This document shows, piece by piece, positions 104 through 50,685 of a stretch of DNA of 64,000 nt. The DNA comes from Lagopus muta. Lineage: Eukaryota > Chordata > Aves > Galliformes > Phasianidae. The stretch spans positions 58,118,578 to 58,182,577 of the forward strand of contig NC_064438.1 of the NCBI RefSeq assembly GCF_023343835.1. The letters are read 5' to 3'. Positions within the stretch are counted from its first letter, which is position 1, and each line of letters starts with the position of its first letter. Under the pieces are notes generated by a model that was not told the DNA's origin, did not search any database, and saw only the letters and a list, made by a program, of their open reading frames with translations. The position numbers and the translations under genes were made by a program.

Positions 104-210
104 GTTGTCACAGCGCAGCCAGATTTCGTTCATTCCCTCTGCAACGGGGATCAGAAGCTTGATGTTAAACTTCTGACCAGAGATGTTCACGTCGGGAGTG
201 ACTTCACAAC
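104..210 (-). CDS. FERMT2: FERMT2 coding exon 11 (PH domain, codons 425-460)
   Basis: This exon encodes the middle of the PH domain, reading [19 protein letters not shown] and then [16 protein letters not shown], almost as in other kindlin-2 proteins. The PH domain binds phosphoinositides and helps recruit the protein to the membrane. The acceptor is a TTGCAG ending at 211 and the donor is AAC|GTAAGT at 103. The length of 107 nt completes the codon opened by exon 10 and ends on a codon boundary. This is the last exon present; the following one would lie left of the window. Confidence 0.96.
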
Positions 211-370
211 CTGCAATGGGAGCCACTGTTCAGAAGGACGTTCTAACAAGGAGAAAACAAGGAATGGACAAGAAAAGGCAAAGCATTCCAGCTAGGTGCT
301 GCCAAATTGCAGGTCTCACAGTGCATCTCCAATGGGACAGCATCACAGGGACACAAACTGTGGCACACAG

Positions 371-440
371 CTATATTAGAATCATAGAATCACAAGGCTG
401 GAAACGACCTATAAGATCATCTAGCTCCTCTTCCCAGTGA
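371..440 (-). mobile_element. CR1 LINE fragment (3' tail)
   Basis: The plus strand reads as the reverse complement of the CR1 3' end: the octamer-type tail AGAATCATAGAATCAC, then GGCTGGAAACGACCTATAAG and ATCATCTAGCTCC. It is short and strongly 5'-truncated. Confidence 0.75.
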
Positions 441-719
441 AGGGAAAATGGAAGACCTGGCCCAAAAGCAGAGACTGAAGCTGACAGGTTCCCCCAGGAC
501 TCACCTCCCATACCTTGGCCTTGATCTAATGGTAAACACCACTTGGTCCCCAGATTTTCACGAAAGTGCAGGAAAATGTGACTGGCCAGGTCCTGGACAC
601 CCATGTGCTGTTCTGTGTGGGTGCACTGCGATGTTTAGTGCTATGAGCATCCCACTTTGGGTGTTCAAGAAATGCTACGAGCCACCGTGCCAACATGGGT
701 GGTGAATGGGGATGGCCAA

Positions 720-880
720 AGTCACAGAATCACAGCACCCCATAATTATAAAACAGTTGGGGTTAGGAGGCACCTTAAAGCCCATCCAGTTCCACACCCT
801 GCTGTGGGCTGACTGCTTCTCCCACCAGTTCAGGCTGCCCAGGACCCCGTCCAGCCTGGTCACAATGAAGTCTCCTTGGA
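720..880 (-). mobile_element. CR1 LINE fragment
   Basis: A diverged CR1 tail begins with the ACAGAATCACAG octamers. It continues with a GTTGGGGTTAGGAGGC segment and the CAGGCTGCCCAGG block found in other CR1 copies in this window. Confidence 0.7.
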
Positions 881-1193
881 GCCTTCTCTCCCCCAGGCTG
901 TCTCCTTGGGCTTGCAAGAACCTGCTTCACTCTGACTTCACTCTGCAGCCAAAAAATGGGCCAGCCTGAGAGGTGAGTGGCAAATGGATATGCTACTGGG
1001 GAGCTGGCAGCACCTAACGGGGTCGTGGGCCATGTGGTAGACATCTCAGCACACACCAGCCCAGCCACTTTCTCCTTTTCACACGTTTATCCACACCCAG
1101 GATGGCACGCTAGGAACACAAGTGGAAAAGCAAGGTGTTGCAGTGGCAGATGATCACTGGAATGCCAAGCAAGTGTGTGAATGCTGCTCCTAC

Positions 1194-1318
1194 CTCTCAA
1201 GTTCATCTGGTGGGCAGGAGTTCCGTTGGCTTCCTCTTTGCTTTTGTAGCAGGAGATGGAGGTATCTTTGAAGGTGCACCAGTATGGCTTGTAACCTTTC
1301 AGGGTCAGCTTCTTGGGC
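1194..1318 (-). CDS. FERMT2: FERMT2 coding exon 10 (PH domain, codons 383-424)
   Basis: This exon encodes PKKLTLKGYKPYWCTFKD, then TSISCYKSKEEANGTPAHQ and MNLRG, the first strands of the kindlin PH domain. The acceptor is CTCACAG ending at 1319 and the donor is GAGAG|GTAGGAG at 1193. Intron phase is 2 on entry and 1 on exit, which fits both neighbours exactly. The basic KPKKLTLKG stretch is typical of the lipid-binding side of the domain. Confidence 0.97.
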
Positions 1319-1404
1319 CTGTGAGACAGGGTGTGGGACGTTACAAACACGGGGCTAACCAGGTGGTGGGATGCAAATTGGGCTGCGAAATGACCACCTG
1401 CAAT

Positions 1405-1560
1405 CACAGGATCGTTGGGGCCAGAAAAGATCACCCAGTTCAGCTCACCCCACCATGCCCAGTGCCCACATCCCTCAGTACCACATCCCCACGGCTCTGG
1501 AATACCTCCAGGGATGGTGACCCCACCACTGCTGGGCAGCTGTGCCACTGCAGCACCGAA
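1405..1560 (-). mobile_element. CR1 LINE fragment
   Basis: It reads as the reverse complement of a CR1 3' region: GGGGCCAGAAAAGATCACC, then CCCTCAGTACCACATC and CACTGCTGGGCAGCTGTGCC. It lies in sense orientation about 90 bases upstream of the exon 10 acceptor. Confidence 0.88.
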
Positions 1561-2431
1561 GGAGATGTAGAAGTTGGGCTGGCAGAAATGTGCACGCAGC
1601 AGCAGTGAGGTGCCCAGCACCCAATCTGACCTCTGGTACCTTAATGGAGTTTTAGAAGTTTATCCAAGCTGCAGTTCTCAGAGATTGCACCGACTGAGCG
1701 GAGTGAACCAGCAACACCTCCTCCCTCCCTGACAACTGACACTCCAACTGGCGAGCAGTTAGCAATTAGAGCTGTGCCTGATTTTATTGGCAAACGAGCA
1801 CGTCAAAGCAAACAGTAAGGTTTTTGTGCGATGGTTTGCTTTCAGGGGAAAACCACCCACCCTGAAGCATGGCGCGGGCTCCAGTCCTGCGGCTTTGCCC
1901 CAGTTGGAGCAGAGACAATTACAACAGAGGGGCTCATTATGGAGCTATTCCACTGCCATCACTTTTCTGCCCCTGTACCTATCCTGTCAACTCCCGTTGG
2001 GTTTATTTACTTTCCAGAACGTTCACCATAACCTGTGCTGCAGCAGAGAACTGCAAAACACTGGAAGCTGCCACAGATCAGCCAACGTCCAGCTGCTGCC
2101 ATTCCCAGGCATCCACGTTGCAGCAGAATGAACAAAACCCATAAATCCTGAGCGCAGGGACATGCAAAGGGTTGACGTTTAAGAACTTCAGGATCAAATG
2201 GGATGGTTGGGAACAACGTGGAATAATACCCAGTGGCTGTGCTGAGTGCTGGAGAAAGCAAAATGTGTTAACAGCGACGGCGCCCAGGTGCTGCAAACTG
2301 CAGGGTAACGGCTCTGCGGTTTCCATGCATGGTAACACAGTGAAATCTGGAGTCAGGAGGGGAAGAAATGGACAGGAGGCAGCAGGGCCATGAATTATTC
2401 ATTGCTACCACCTCTTCCCAGCAGTACTTAC
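1561..2431 (-). other. FERMT2: FERMT2 intron between exons 9 and 10 (remainder)
   Basis: Non-coding intron sequence apart from the CR1 at 1405-1560. Several short open frames overlap on both strands, but none resembles a known protein and none has splice-site support. Confidence 0.8.
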
Positions 2432-2481
2432 TTGAATACTTTAATGTAGTCAGCGAGCTCCGGGATGGAAGTGATGTCACC
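2432..2481 (-). CDS. FERMT2: FERMT2 coding exon 9 (codons 367-382)
   Basis: A short 50-nt exon encoding GDITSIPELADYIKVFK with the last lysine split, at the F2 to PH transition. The acceptor TTTTCAG ends at 2482 and the donor is TTCAA|GTAAGT at 2431. It enters in phase 0 and leaves in phase 2, matching exons 8 and 10. The acceptor lies about 20 nt from the end of a sense CR1 tail (see 2501-2560). Confidence 0.96.
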
Positions 2482-2500
2482 CTGAAAATATAAAGGAGAG

Positions 2501-2560
2501 GATCGTAGAATGGGCTGGGATGGAAGGGACCTCAAAGGTCACCCAGATCCGACCACCAAA
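2501..2560 (-). mobile_element. CR1 LINE 3' tail abutting the exon 9 acceptor
   Basis: On the plus strand, GATCGTAGAATGGGCTGGGA and then TGGAAGGGACCTCAAAGGTC are the reverse complement of a CR1 3' end. The element is sense to FERMT2. Its terminal octamer-like sequence ends about 20 nt upstream of the exon 9 acceptor. Confidence 0.82.
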
Positions 2561-3468
2561 CGGTCACTTCCAGTGCTGGGGGAGGAAGCACACAGAGCAT
2601 CTACTGCATGGGAGTGCTGCCTGGAAAGCAGAGGGCAATACTCTATGGTTTTTATGGGATTCCTGCTGAGCGCTGTCACGCTGAATGGCATTTCCAGTTC
2701 CCACGAGCTCCAACCAAAGGGTTTTCAAACGACACGGAGCACAAACAGCGCTGCAGCAGTTTCCAGCAGTGGGACAGTTTACTTTCTGTCTGCAGTGAGC
2801 AATGCTGTTTACAGATACAACGGGGGAAAAAAAATGCAGAATCTAAACAAACAATCCACTAATTGCCCATTATCCGTATTCAATTACTCGAATGCATCTG
2901 GAAATGGCTACTGGGAGCAACCGGTAGAGAAAGGGATGGATTTTTTTTTGACGAATCATTGCCTTCTTCACTCCTGTCTGGTGGGGATTGCTCCTCAGTG
3001 CTGTGCTTCAGCTCTGCTTTGCAAATACATTGTGAACGGTCTCTTGGCTCTGACAACCAGGCCCTATTTCGATCATAGAATCACAGAATGACCTGGTTTG
3101 ATAAGGACCACAATCACCATCTAGTTTCAACCCCCTGCTATGTGCAGGGTCGCCAACCACTGAACCCACTATTTCTGCTGCATCCCAGTGATGCTGCTCT
3201 CCCTGCCAATCTCTGCAGGCTGAGGGTGGCAGTTCTACTTCAAAATATGAAACTACTATTGGGCTCTATGCTCTGCATCACAACCGTAGGGTCATTAAGG
3301 TTGGAAAAAAGGATCATCACACTCAAACGTGTTGCTCCACTGGGCTGCAGGCAACAGAAAAAACAAAGGAGACGAAGGAAATAAGGCAGGTTGGATGCTC
3401 AGAACAGTGATCCTTGCTTGCAAGAGGCAAGGAGGGGATGTGTACAGCCCTGTGCCCACAGCCCTTAC
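2561..3468 (-). other. FERMT2: FERMT2 intron between exons 8 and 9 (remainder)
   Basis: Non-coding. It holds a CR1 fragment at about 3072-3190 and a second short CR1-like tail near 3280-3330. I see nothing else that can be assigned. Confidence 0.8.
3072..3190 (-). mobile_element. CR1 LINE fragment
   Basis: The reverse-complement CR1 tail starts with GATCATAGAATCACAGAATG and continues with TCAACCCCCTGCTATGTGCA and GGGTCGCCAACCAC. It is of the same general subfamily as the copy at 3789. Confidence 0.85.
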
Positions 3469-3603
3469 CAGAATTGTCGACGTTTTGCCACCTTCCAAGG
3501 TGATTTCCAGGTCAGAGAGCGCAGCATCCACCTCGTCCACATCTTTGTCGCTGTTGTTCAGGTGGTTTTCTGATGACATGATGGACAGCTTGTTGATGTG
3601 GTA
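3469..3603 (-). CDS. FERMT2: FERMT2 coding exon 8 (F2, codons 322-366)
   Basis: This exon encodes YHINKLSIMSSENHLNNSDK, then DVDEVDAALSDLEITLEGGK and TSTIL, the acidic F2 segment that precedes the PH domain. The acceptor CTTTCAG ends at 3604 and the donor is TTCTG|GTAAGG at 3468. Both ends are on codon boundaries (135 nt, 45 codons). Confidence 0.97.
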
Positions 3604-3788
3604 CTGAAAGGCAAGGCATGGCTGCGTGAGCACAGGCGGCCTGCACCCACTGCTCTTCCCTCATCCACCAGGCTGTGCACCACACCATGTTCTTCCAGTG
3701 ACAACCGCTCAGCATTTTTGGATGCACAAACTTTTGCTGAAACGGCCCAACTGTTGTGATGAGGCTGCAACGTGCACAAAGATCTCCC

Positions 3789-3945
3789 ATCATAGAACCA
3801 CAGCATGGCCTGGGTTGCAAAGGAACTCACCCAGCTCCAACCCCCTGCTGTGTGCAGGTCGCCAACCAGCAGCCCAAGCTGCCCAGAGCCACATCCAGCC
3901 TGGCCTTGAATGCCTGCAGGGATGGGGCATCCACAGCCTCTCTTG
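3789..3945 (-). mobile_element. CR1 LINE fragment, young-looking subfamily
   Basis: The plus strand shows ACAGCATGGCCTGGGTTGCA, then CAACCCCCTGCTGTGTGCAG and the block down to GGGATGGGGCATCCACAGCC. This subfamily has at least seven copies in the window, several nearly identical. Confidence 0.93.
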
Positions 3946-4581
3946 TCTTACGTTGTTTTTACAGAAATGCAGTGAAACCTCACTCCAAGCACTAAGCACA
4001 GCCCAACGTGGGCTGCTGACAGAGTTAGGCTGAATCTTTATATTTTTGTTTTCACCATTTTCTTCCTGGGAGGGGCCCTAAGAGCAGACTTGGGCTCCCT
4101 CTGGGGATGTTCCTACATCCTCCAGCAACGAGGAGCGCCAGACCACACATAGGAAATTGCCCACTGTCCGTCCCACAGAAGTCAATAGCAGGTGTAGTAT
4201 TTATGCCAAATCACACCAAGGACTTCATAAAGCAGATAAATACGTCGTTCCAGGAAACCCACAGATTACCACCAGCTGTTTGGGGGGCAGCATGCCAGCA
4301 ATGTGCAGCTCAGGAACTTACTGTCCTTACACTTGGCTTTGTCAAACAGGGCAAAGCAACAAGTCCAGGCAGACATAAACATGTTTGCGAAAAGAAGGCT
4401 ACATTCCTCTTCATAAGGAGTAACAGCAGCCAACATGCTAACTGCCCAATAAGTGGGACAGGAGACAGAAGCAGTCCAACTCCTATCAGCACAGGAATCC
4501 CAAGCAATAAATCAACAGAGCGGTCTACAAGAGCCACAAAATGAAGCTTGACCAAACCAAGTGTTGGGGGCCATCTCCTAC
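3946..4581 (-). other. FERMT2: FERMT2 intron between exons 7 and 8 (remainder)
   Basis: Single-copy-looking intron sequence without coding or RNA features that I can support. Confidence 0.75.
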
Positions 4582-4689
4582 CTGCAGCGCTGCAAACATC
4601 ATCATCTCCTCCTCCGTGCACTCGATCTCCTCCAGCAGGATGGCCCACTTGGACTGCTCATACAGCTGGTTGATCCTGATGGCGTCGTA
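4582..4689 (-). CDS. FERMT2: FERMT2 coding exon 7 (F2, codons 286-321)
   Basis: This exon encodes [20 protein letters not shown], then [16 protein letters not shown], the conserved F2 helix region. The acceptor GTGCTCAG ends at 4690 and the donor is CTGCAG|GTAGGAG at 4581. It has 108 nt and codon boundaries at both ends. Confidence 0.97.
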
Positions 4690-5016
4690 CTGAGCACAGG
4701 GAGAAACAGCACAGCCCATAAGAGAGGTGCCACAGCAAGACCCGCCATCTCCCTCGCCCTGGGCACAACACGCCCTCATCTGATTACCCTTTTCAATGCT
4801 CCCTTCAGCCCAGGGTGGACAAGGCTCACAGCCACAAAGCAGTCCCTGCAATGCCTTTCATCCCAGGGCACGGCAGCGTGCACACCTGCCCTTGATGCAA
4901 GCACCCATTTGCAATGTGGTGGAATATTTACCAGCACAAATGCACTCTGGAGACACAGGCATCCTTCGCCCAAACCGTTTGCCTGCAAGGTGCAAGCCAA
5001 GAAACTAACTCCTTAC
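4690..5016 (-). other. FERMT2: FERMT2 intron between exons 6 and 7
   Basis: About 330 bases of intron. An open frame running antisense through both flanking exons is a shadow. No repeat is recognised. Confidence 0.75.
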
Positions 5017-5119
5017 CTTTGGATTCAGGTCGAAAAAGCTGTAATACTTGAACCGGAGCAGCAAAGCCTCGTTTTCCTTCACCTCCTGCTCCATGAGGGA
5101 TCGGGACGAATCCAACCAC
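5017..5119 (-). CDS. FERMT2: FERMT2 coding exon 6 (F2, codons 251-285)
   Basis: This exon encodes [20 protein letters not shown], then [14 protein letters not shown], the LRFKY/FFDLNPK signature of the kindlin F2 lobe. The acceptor TTTGCAG ends at 5120 and the donor is CAAAG|GTAAGG at 5016. It enters in phase 2, completing the Gly codon opened by exon 5, and leaves in phase 0. Confidence 0.97.
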
Positions 5120-5634: not shown

Positions 5635-5850
5635 TTCTTCTCCAAGAGCAAAACTGATGGAAAAGCCATTCCCGAGCCGAATCCGTGGGAAAACCCGCGG
5701 GTCTCCCTGGGCCACCCCCCACTTACCGGTGTTACCTGGAGCTTAAAGATTTTGGAAGTCAAAGGTTTTAGAGGAGCAGGAAAATAAACTAAGGGCACGG
5801 CCAGAGAGACCAGAGGCAGAGCACAAAAGTCCTAAGGAGGTGGAGCTCAC

Positions 5851-5883
5851 CTTTGACGGGGCCGATGTAAAGAATATCGGTGC
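5851..5883 (-). CDS. FERMT2: FERMT2 candidate cassette microexon, 33 nt (11 codons)
   Basis: On the minus strand a long pyrimidine tract (CCTCCTTTCTTTCCCTCTCC) leads into ATAG at 5884, followed by 33 bases and a consensus donor, CAAAG|GTGAGC at 5850. The intron phases match its neighbours exactly (in 1, out 1). Inclusion inserts the residues GTDILYIGPVK between PGS and GNIYSS without a stop or frame change. The site is the disordered F1 loop just after the poly-lysine segment. The splice signals and phase are seen directly; use as an alternative exon is inference. I cannot confirm from memory whether mammals have an equivalent. Confidence 0.75.
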
Positions 5884-20640: not shown

Positions 20641-20874
20641 TGAAGGTTTTGCATATGTCAGAAACCGCCTTGAAGACTCTGTCGGAGAAGTTGACCTTCA
20701 CCTTCACGTACTTCATGTTGGGCAGCTGCAGGCGGAGCAGCTTGTGCTGCGGTGTGAACTGCAGCTTGGCGTCAGCCTGGATCCCATACTTGTCCAACGT
20801 CCAGTGTGTTTTGAGGAGCCACGTCTTCTTCTTTTCCCACCAGAGCGCGTGGTCCGACCAGTCCTTCTTGACAT
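20641..20874 (-). CDS. FERMT2: FERMT2 coding exon 3 (F0/F1, codons 53-130)
   Basis: This exon encodes [60 protein letters not shown] and [17 protein letters not shown]: the end of the F0 lobe and the start of F1, nearly invariant in kindlin-2. The acceptor TTGCAG ends at 20875 and the donor is CTTCA|GTGAGT at 20640. Phase is 1 at both ends; the first two bases complete the Asp codon opened in exon 2. Confidence 0.98.
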
Positions 20875-30682: not shown

Positions 30683-30839
30683 CGAGCTTCTCGACGAGGC
30701 GCAGCATGACTCCCCCGATGTGGATCTCCCCGGTGACCCTCAGGGTGACGTCGCGGCCCAGGTCGGTGACATGGACGCTCAGCTCCCACGTCCCGTCGGC
30801 GTAGCAGCCGTCCGGCATGCGGATCCCGTCCAGCGCCAT
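30683..30839 (-). CDS. FERMT2: FERMT2 coding exon 2 (start codon, F0 lobe, codons 1-52)
   Basis: The ATG at 30839 begins MALDGIRMPDGCYADGTWEL, then SVHVTDLGRDVTLRVTGEI and HIGGVMLRLVEKLG, the F0 ubiquitin-like lobe of kindlin-2. The Kozak context is good (G at -3, G at +4). The exon runs from the acceptor GCGCAG, ending at 30852, to the donor CTCG|GTGAGT at 30682, leaving 12 untranslated bases (30840-30851) before this ATG. Those 12 bases contain no stop, so an upstream in-frame start is possible. Confidence 0.98.
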
Positions 30840-30994
30840 GGCCCCGGCCTCCTGCGCGCAGAGAGCAGCGCTCAGCGCCGGCACGGCACGGCTCGGAGCG
30901 GGGCAGGCAGGCAGGGAGGGACGGACGGAGCCCGGGGGGCGCGGGGGGGGACAGCGCGGCCGCCCCCGAACCGCTGCCTGCGGGGCCGCCGTTT

Positions 30995-48388: not shown

Positions 48389-49709
48389 CTGAGCTCAGCA
48401 AAAACAAACAAACAAAAGGAAAACAAGCACGAGGTCAGCCAATTCAAACTGCAAATTAAAGCCGCCGCTGCACCCGTCAATTAGAGCGGGGTGATGGAAA
48501 ACACTATTCATGCTTTTCTAGGGTGGGAACAGCTTATCTGACTGAAGTCTACACTGTTCATCGCGATGCTAATCTAGTGGACAGGCAAAGGCTGTAATTT
48601 GGAACCTGTAGTTACGGGGAACAAAAAAATAGATGGGAATGCTTTTGCAGAAAGGAATCTGGAATTTTTAAGTCTGCGTTGTAATTCCTCCTTTATAGAA
48701 AGTTTAAGACAAATGTTTCAAAACCATGATGCTGCCTTCTGAACCTAAGAATCCCATGGGAATATTGAAGAGACTTCTTTTGTTTGTGGTCCTCAGGATG
48801 AAATAACCCCTACAGAGCTTTAGAAATGCTCTACCGTCCTTCAGTACGACTCCTTTGGTTGCTCAGGAAGGTGTAAAAGCTAGGAACAGATCTGAGATGT
48901 TTTCTCCTGACTTTGCTGCCACCGTATGGACGAGACACTGAAGTTGCTGTAGTAAAACAGCAAAAAGCAGTGTACTGTGAGAGAACGCTGCTCTGAAATG
49001 CTGCATGCTTTCACTTAAGGACTGAACTGCTTTTATACACTCTATTTGTTGGGTTGGCAGGATTTCTTGCACTAGGTCACACTAACCTTCTTCCAGATCC
49101 CACACAGAGAGCTAAAGAAAGTCCTTGAGTCAACAAAAACTGCATGTGTGTGCTCAAATATAAGCTCCAGTGAAAGTGATTTTAAGCTCTACTAAATCAG
49201 GGCTTACTCTGATTCGGAAAGTTGATTCAGAAAGGCAGAAAGGGACAGACTTCACAGTGAAATAGCCCGAATCTCCCTTGGTAAAATTATACAGTATTGG
49301 GTTCCATTTAACCTATACGGAGTGATTTTTTTCCTTCTATTTGTCAATACCACAGAATGCAAACACAAAACAAGCTTCAAAGTATTTCAAAACATGAAGT
49401 ACAGTGGATATTATATGAAGCCCCCAGGATGTTACCATAAGAAGGCAGACAATAGAGCGGCAATAGCATAAACTCTCTGACCCACATCCTCTCCCTGCAA
49501 CGCATCCTTTCCTTGACTTCAGTGTATTATGTAAACTGCCTTTTCTTCAAAGCAAATGTTAGTTTGGATTAGAACAAGCAATGCACCCCACGCAAAACAA
49601 GCACTGAAAACAGGCAGGAATGACTTGCTGACAGTTGGACCTTAAACACCACATAGCAGTGATGCTGTGTGAGAAGACCCCTGCAGAAAAAGGGACAAGG
49701 AGCAATTAC
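48389..49709 (-). other. DDHD1: DDHD1 intron
   Basis: 1.3 kb of AT-rich single-copy intron. No CR1 fragment is recognised, which is notable beside its neighbours, and no other feature is seen. Confidence 0.75.
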
Positions 49710-49962
49710 CCAGTATACTGGCTTTGCCTATGTTGGTTATGGACTCCCCGTAGTGGCGCCGAACCATGACTGGTGAAGTAGTTGGGCTTGGTACAGTTGA
49801 AGCACTTTCGCCATCCGTAACTGAGGTAGGTTCTTTTGTTGGGTTGAGAAAACTTGGCTTCATATGCTCGTAAGGTAGAGGGTTTGCGGTGTTGTACCAG
49901 TGGATCTGGACTGGTGAAATGTTGCTGTAGTGCTTCAGGATTAAAGGTTCTAATCTATAGGC
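49710..49962 (-). CDS. DDHD1: DDHD1 coding exon (DDHD domain, AYRLEPLILKHYSN)
   Basis: This exon encodes AYRLEPLILKHYSNISPVQI, HWYNTANPLPYEHMKPSFLN, PTKEPTSVTDGESASTVPSP and TTSPVMVRRHYGESITNIGK, ASIL. The first part is strongly conserved in DDHD1; the serine/threonine-rich middle is a variable linker. The acceptor CTTGCAG ends at 49963 and the donor is CTGG|GTAATT at 49709. It enters in phase 0 and leaves in phase 1. Confidence 0.97.
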
Positions 49963-50685
49963 CTGCAAGAGGAATTCAGGAAAGAAAACAGAGTGACAAG
50001 ACTGAAATCTATATACCCTATACTATATACCAGACTATACTACAATACTGTATACCAGAGTCTGGATAGGAAAGCATGAAACTCCCCAGTCAGACTCCTG
50101 TTCAAAGAGGCTGCCAAGGCCGTATGGATCAGAGGCCCAACATCCTGCCTTTGATGACAGCTAACACTGGCTGCCTATGGAGGAGCACAAGGACAGCACA
50201 AAGCTATACCAATACTTCCTTCCCAAGGCCTATCCCACCCTCTAACAATCTGTTACTCCCTTAGGGAAAACGACAGTGTCTTTGTTTTTCTACAGTATTC
50301 TGTGAACTGCTTGTGAAGCCTTTTTATGATGGCAGTAGTAGATTTGGATCCATGACATTTAATGGAAGCCAGTAAGCTAAAGCCAAGTTGGAACTTGACT
50401 GAAGGGTTATTTCACGTCTTTGCAAAAAAGCAAGTTGAGTACACTCAAATTTGACCCTTATTAATTAGAAAAGAGAAGCAAAGTGCACGACACTGAAGGC
50501 AACCATTTGCAGCAAATGCTTCTCAACTGCTACAAAACCCGAGGTACTGCACAGCAATCATGAACAGCCAGTGCAGTGCAGGAACACACATGTGTCAGCT
50601 CACACACTTTGAAGAACTCGTTATCACACAGCCAACACTTAGAAACAAAAAAAGGTAAAAGCTTGCAACTGGAATTACAACTCAC
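49963..50685 (-). other. DDHD1: DDHD1 intron
   Basis: 720 bases of intron with no repeat or coding signal recognised. Confidence 0.75.

What the first reader, a model, noticed from the sequence alone, without database searches (positions are those of the whole stretch)
5851..5883. In-frame 33-nt microexon in the kindlin-2 F1 loop
Seen: a long pyrimidine tract and ATAG acceptor, 33 bases without a stop, and a consensus GTGAGC donor, with phase 1 at both ends to match exon 4 and exon 5. Inclusion adds GTDILYIGPVK right after the poly-lysine loop that binds acidic membranes. Known: microexons of 3n length are often switched in neurons or muscle and add short surface motifs. Inference: an alternative kindlin-2 isoform with altered membrane or partner binding.
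Basis: partly seen in the sequence, partly recalled or inferred. Interest (0 to 1): 0.75.

Follow-up and report, generated by a model that had tools for sequence, protein, structure and literature searches.

The report
Conserved optional kindlin-2 mini-exon
A bird kindlin-2 gene carries a real, optional 33-base exon that adds eleven amino acids to a flexible loop; the same insert is already annotated in vertebrates from lamprey to mammals, but I found no description of what it does.

Summary
On the minus strand, 5883-5851 is a 33-nt exon (phase 1 at both ends, peptide G-TDILYIGPVK) between FERMT2 coding exons 9773-9639 and 5429-5204. By a recalled weight matrix it is the only acceptor-donor pair 6-60 nt apart in the window, either strand, that reaches both its scores. 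None of 1000 simulated introns gave an equally strong in-frame pair. A public 2095-base contig encodes the exact exon-4/microexon/exon-5 join (P0001). The homologous insert is present in 47 of 139 retrieved kindlin-2 proteins: birds, mammals, turtle, snake, lizards, frog, a ray, sturgeons, teleosts and a lamprey. In 36 of the 47 both flanks join cleanly; 69 of 139 skip it cleanly. So it is an old vertebrate alternative exon, already in databases as predicted isoforms such as a 691-aa mammalian form. Two peptide searches found no paper, and the three kindlin-2 PDB chains aligned lack it. What it does is unknown. I favour a short binding motif, (S/T)(D/E)(V/I)(L/I)(Y/F)IGPxK, spliced into the F1 loop about 22 residues after the lysine run and beside a phosphorylated segment. 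Tissue specificity is untested.

The parts
5851..5883 (-). 33-nt alternative exon of FERMT2 (kindlin-2), phase 1-1, encoding (G)TDILYIGPVK
   Evidence: same peptide in spliced contig P0001 and birds P0002-P0004
5884..5957 (-). acceptor and long pyrimidine-rich tract; no AG between the acceptor AG and the AG at -76/-75; 80 of the last 100 intron nt are C/T
5845..5850 (-). donor GTGAGC
30683..30839 (-). FERMT2 coding sequence from the ATG (first coding exon mapped)
20641..20874 (-). FERMT2 coding exon
104..5119 (-). further FERMT2 coding exons 5119-5017, 4689-4582, 3603-3469, 2481-2432, 1318-1194, 210-104; the gene runs off the low end of the window

Best explanation
5883-5851 is a genuine, ancient vertebrate cassette exon of FERMT2. 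When it is included, kindlin-2 gains eleven residues in the long loop of its F1 domain, between LEGPLITPGS and (S/N)IYSSPGLYSK. The insert is best read as a short linear binding motif: an acidic residue, four hydrophobic or aromatic residues, then G-P-x-K. Its inclusion would tune what the loop binds (an adaptor, or membrane beside the lysine run) or how the neighbouring Src-site segment is used, without touching the folded integrin-binding part. Shown here: the exon, its conserved frame and peptide, and both splice forms in databases. Inferred: that it acts as a short motif, and that splicing factors switch it between cell types. The confidence given is for the exon and its place in the protein; for the docking-motif reading alone I would say about 0.45.
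For: Window anatomy and splice-site strength. P0001, on a 2095-base contig of source 'lgn', equals the window's spliced product at 357 of its first 358 residues, insert included. In the window these exons span about 27 kb, so the contig must derive from spliced RNA (or a retrocopy); it then runs into an unrelated protein, probably an assembly join. The insert is present in 47 of 139 retrieved proteins: birds, placental and marsupial mammals, turtle, snake, lizards, frog, ray, sturgeons, teleosts, lamprey; 36 of the 47 join cleanly on both sides, with 11 inserted residues in 34 and 12 in 2. Clean skipping is seen in 69 of 139. Across the 47: column 2 D/E in 44, column 3 V/I in 47, column 4 L/I/V in 47, column 5 Y in 44 and F in 3 (the 47 were chosen by a motif with (Y/F)IGPx(K/R), so those positions are constant by construction). 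Neighbouring kindlin-2 sites including T172, S175, Y179 and Y193 are listed as phosphorylated, and Y193 is a Src site (PMC8067640, passages). The acceptor has a long AG-free pyrimidine tract with PTB-type words (recalled) at -46, -44 and -20.
Against: No RNA-seq junction counts or tissue data were available. Many insert-bearing records are automated gene predictions, and 11 of the 47 lack the regular flanks on one or both sides; one of the 11 is the lamprey, whose flank differs in sequence. The structure prediction failed (mean pLDDT 38.5), so it says nothing about the insert. No binding partner is known. Clustering at 90% identity mixes isoforms, so database member counts do not measure inclusion. 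No tandem CAC motif lies downstream, against direct RBPMS activation.
Confidence: 0.8

Rival explanations
1. The insert makes a tyrosine phosphorylation site read as Y-I-G-P, a pYxxP motif of the type bound by CRK-family SH2 domains (motif recalled), next to the Src-phosphorylated part of the loop.
For: YIGP in 44 of 47 inserts, and an acidic residue three before the tyrosine in 44 of 47; the loop already carries Src site Y193 (passages of PMC8067640).
Against: Three sturgeon proteins have F in place of Y (P0022, P0023, P0025), although the rest of the motif is kept. The review's site table, numbered for the form without the insert, gives no information on this tyrosine.
Confidence: 0.2
2. The insert is a SUMO-interacting-type core (hydrophobic-hydrophobic-x-hydrophobic after an acidic residue; consensus recalled).
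For: The (V/I/L)(V/I/L)x(V/I/L) core fits 47 of 47 inserts, including the sturgeons with F, and an acidic residue precedes it in 44 of 47 (the last position was fixed by the selection motif).
Against: The consensus is short and unspecific; I ran no test of enrichment and no search for a link between kindlin-2 and SUMO.
Confidence: 0.08
3. The insert is a hydrophobic wedge that deepens membrane binding by the lysine-rich loop.
For: I-L-Y-I is hydrophobic, and F1 loops bind acidic lipids in kindlin-1 and kindlin-3 (PMC4839668, passages).
Against: It lies about 22 residues from the lysines. A lipid wedge would not need a conserved acidic residue.
Confidence: 0.15
4. A pseudo-exon with no use.
For: No junction reads could be examined.
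Against: Only splice-site pair of its strength in the window, spliced contig P0001, frame and peptide kept from lamprey to mammals.
Confidence: 0.02

Closest known systems
FERMT2 / kindlin-2 database isoforms with the F1-loop insert (e.g. P0015, 691 aa, Manis javanica isoform X3; P0014, 698 aa, rat isoform X4; P0027, 695 aa, Pholidichthys)
   Same: Same place in the protein, same length in 34 of 36 cleanly flanked records, same core peptide
   Different: The bird peptide is TDILYIGPVK; most mammals here have TDVLYIGPLK, most teleosts SE(V/I)IYIGPVK, lamprey KDVLYIGPVR
The 21-nt FERMT2 microexon at chr14:53,327,731 listed in PMC8627023 (passage)
   Same: A short frame-keeping exon of the same gene
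   Different: 21 nt, not 33. By recall of the gene map it lies near the 3' end of FERMT2. The seven-residue insert PGYIRDL and variants, seen in 18 of 139 proteins, is probably this one; it is a separate event
RBPMS-activated cassette exon of rat Fermt2 in smooth muscle (PMC6613909, passages)
   Same: Alternative exon of the same gene, included in aorta tissue and on RBPMS overexpression
   Different: The passages do not say which exon. The bird exon has no tandem CAC motif in the 300 nt downstream, where such motifs are enriched for RBPMS-activated exons
FERMT2 exon 11 switch between prenatal and postnatal human heart (PMC12925949, passages)
   Same: Developmental splicing change in FERMT2
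   Different: Numbered exon 11 of one transcript, which does not look like the F1-loop exon; I could not map it

Membership tests
Kindlin-2 (FERMT2) coding exon | Splices in frame between recognised FERMT2 exons | tested here: met
   Spliced window product reads through 471 residues as kindlin-2 with AG/GT at every internal boundary; exon matches by tblastn
Kindlin-2 (FERMT2) coding exon | Homologous insert in other kindlin-2 proteins | tested here: met
   47 of 139 retrieved proteins, 36 with clean flanks
Alternative (cassette) exon | Both inclusion and skipping occur | tested here: met
   47 inclusion and 69 clean skipping records of 139, 23 neither; many are predictions, one is a spliced contig with the exon (P0001)
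Alternative (cassette) exon | Both junctions seen in RNA of the same species | not testable with these tools
Microexon, strict definition | 3-27 nt long | tested here: not met
   33 nt; definition from PMC8187152 passage
Neural SRRM4-type microexon programme | Neuronal inclusion, UGC near the acceptor (recalled) | tested here: inconclusive
   Nearest TGC at -60, 3 in 300 nt upstream against 6.3 expected from the intron; no tissue data
RBPMS-activated smooth-muscle exon | CACN1-12CAC downstream of the exon | tested here: not met
   0 in 300 nt downstream, 1 upstream at -157; rule from PMC6613909 passages
CRK SH2 ligand (pYxxP) | Conserved tyrosine with P at +3 | tested here: inconclusive
   44 of 47; F in three sturgeon proteins

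The most novel reading that the evidence does not exclude
Kindlin-2 exists as two functional forms in jawed vertebrates and lampreys, distinguished by an optional docking motif in the F1 loop kept since before these lineages split. Kindlin-2 work based on the form without it has missed a splice-controlled switch in how integrin adhesions recruit an adaptor or enzyme.
Probability: 0.3. Interest if true: 0.65.

Novelty: already known. Interest (0 to 1): 0.38.

Why it matters
Kindlin-2 is an essential integrin co-activator (recalled). The three kindlin-2 PDB chains whose alignments I saw (8tee, 8tec, 6xtj) carry no insert, and 6xtj lacks this part of the loop altogether. An exon kept in frame from lamprey to mammals and birds is likely to matter, yet my two peptide searches of an open-licence library found no paper mentioning it. 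The question is easy to test with isoform-specific deletion, pull-downs and existing RNA-seq.

Tried and rejected
Rfam found nothing at its gathering scores in the window. A splicing-motif scan showed no strong signal beyond the pyrimidine tract. The peptide searches GTDILYIGPVK and dvlyigp found no paper. From them I opened passages of PMC8627023, PMC3882056 (only a kindlin-2 knock-down control, no FERMT2 splicing in the passages), PMC6613909, PMC12925949, PMC8067640, PMC4839668 and PMC8187152 and no paper in full. Other listed papers that hold FERMT2 with splicing words (PMC10505920, PMC9638104, PMC8222926 and others) were seen in listings only, so a mention of this exon there is not excluded. 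One search allowed any two of six terms, and its 30 listed papers of 527 held no FERMT2. The library holds only openly licensed papers. The hypothesis of a chance pseudo-exon was rejected. I considered that the exon might occur in kindlin-1, kindlin-3 or invertebrate kindlins: among the 120 of 128 hits listed, every record with an organism name is a vertebrate and every one named as a kindlin or fermitin is kindlin-2. That search only reaches proteins sharing exact five-letter words, so absence elsewhere is not shown. The one hagfish protein seen, P0122, lacks the insert. The third protein search was not used.

Full report
What is in the window. Translated exon matches place the N-terminal two thirds of FERMT2 (kindlin-2) on the minus strand, from an ATG at 30839 down to an exon at 210-104, where the gene leaves the window. 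Joining these exons with 5883-5851 gives 471 residues without a stop; leaving it out gives 460. Every internal boundary is AG/GT. The organism looks like a bird, probably galliform: the L of ESLAKLYKP is shared with two pheasants (P0039, P0040), while the other 16 of 18 retrieved proteins with that stretch have M, among them peafowl P0041 and quail P0064. Whether it is chicken I did not establish.

Is it more than chance? With a simple recalled weight matrix the acceptor scores 9.76 and the donor 6.82. No other FERMT2 exon in the window has a better acceptor, and one has a better donor (the donor of the 20874 exon was one base off there and was not scored). In 1000 first-order Markov simulations of the 4209-nt intron, 2 contained a 6-60-nt pair as strong and none contained one that was also in frame and open. 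Scanning both strands of the real window for pairs 6-60 nt apart found this pair alone at that strength. With looser cut-offs only two others appeared, of which one is the genuine 50-nt FERMT2 exon.

Is it used? One search (169 hits, best 120 listed) returned P0001 at the top, 454 residues on a 2095-base contig. Its first 358 residues match the window's included product at all but one position, insert and both junctions included. In the window the exons concerned span about 27 kb, so such a short contig can only come from spliced RNA (or a retrocopy, less likely). After residue 358 it continues into an unrelated protein, which I take for LSM3 by recall (one search lists the LSM domain PF01423), evidently an assembly join.

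How old is it? Of the 139 proteins retrieved by two searches (one search listed 120 of 169, one search listed 120 of 128), 47 carry the insert, 69 join PGSG directly to (N/S)(I/V)YSSP, and 23 fall in neither class: several gene models with read-in sequence, several truncated ones, and the hagfish. Of the 47, 36 have the regular sequence on both sides, 34 with eleven inserted residues and 2 with twelve. Of the other 11, ten look like irregular gene models and one is the lamprey with a diverged flank. The 47 include birds, placental and marsupial mammals, a turtle, a snake, lizards, a frog, a stingray, sturgeons, many teleosts and the river lamprey (KDVLYIGPVR). The pattern is (S/T)(D/E)(V/I)(L/I)(Y/F)IGP(V/L)K. 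I picked the 47 by a motif with (Y/F)IGPx(K/R), so those positions are constant by construction, but the others are free: column 2 is D/E in 44 of 47 and column 3 is V/I in 47; within the allowed letters column 5 is Y in 44 and F in 3. Member counts of the 90% clusters cannot be read as isoform counts.

What it probably does. The insert lies in the long F1 loop. The lysine run starts at residue 149 of the 691-aa mammalian form, the insert is 177-186, and the residue equivalent to Src site Y193 is 204. A review lists T172, S175, S177, Y179, S180, S181, Y185 and Y193 among the phosphosites of kindlin-2 and describes Y193 as a Src target important for outside-in signalling (PMC8067640, passages). 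F1 loops of kindlin-1 and kindlin-3 bind acidic lipids, and the kindlin-3 lysine-rich peptide stays extended (PMC4839668, passages). The kindlin-2 chains 8tee and 8tec skip the insert and 6xtj lacks this part of the loop. The conserved acidic-hydrophobic-IGP core looks like a short docking motif more than a lipid anchor, but this is inference. A pYxxP reading is attractive and is weakened by the phenylalanine in sturgeons; a SUMO-interacting core fits all sequences but is unspecific. The one structure prediction I ran was too poor to use.

How it may be regulated. The nearest AG upstream of the acceptor is at -76/-75 and 80 of the last 100 intron nt are pyrimidines, with three PTB-type words within 50 nt. 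That is the look of a PTBP-repressed exon (recalled rule). Rat Fermt2 has a cassette exon included in aorta and on RBPMS expression (PMC6613909, passages), but the passages do not identify it, and this bird exon lacks the downstream tandem CAC motif. Human FERMT2 exon 11 changes in heart development (PMC12925949, passages) and a 21-nt FERMT2 exon is listed as a microexon (PMC8627023, passage); the second is not this exon by length, and the first does not look like it.

Verdict. The proposed function is open. It is a sound but ordinary annotation find with one attractive question: why this peptide has been kept since the lamprey split.

Noticed in passing
window 58519-58499, minus strand: A 21-nt AG...GT pair (ATAGAGTACCTGGGAGCCACG, donor GTGAGT) is the only other pair 6-60 nt apart that passes acceptor 7 and donor 6 in the window; it lies upstream of FERMT2, and ORF 49642-50022 (minus) reads to me like a DDHD1 exon (recalled). 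It may be a DDHD1 microexon.
   Followed up: partly
FERMT2 C-terminal part, beyond the window (proteins P0003, P0018, P0020, P0027 and others): A second optional insert, seven residues (PGYIRDL and variants) before (I/L)(T/S)AR, occurs in 18 of 139 retrieved kindlin-2 proteins, including the hagfish; probably the 21-nt exon of PMC8627023.
   Followed up: partly
window about 30840-30853, minus strand: An AG lies 12 bases before the kindlin-2 ATG (GCGCGCAG/GAGGCCGGGGCC ATG), and some bird records (P0047, P0064) extend N-terminally through ...AKEAGA-MALDG, so a further upstream coding exon may exist.
   Followed up: no
P0001 (source lgn): The contig is chimeric: kindlin-2 to residue 358, then an unrelated protein with an LSM domain (one search lists PF01423).
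   Followed up: yes
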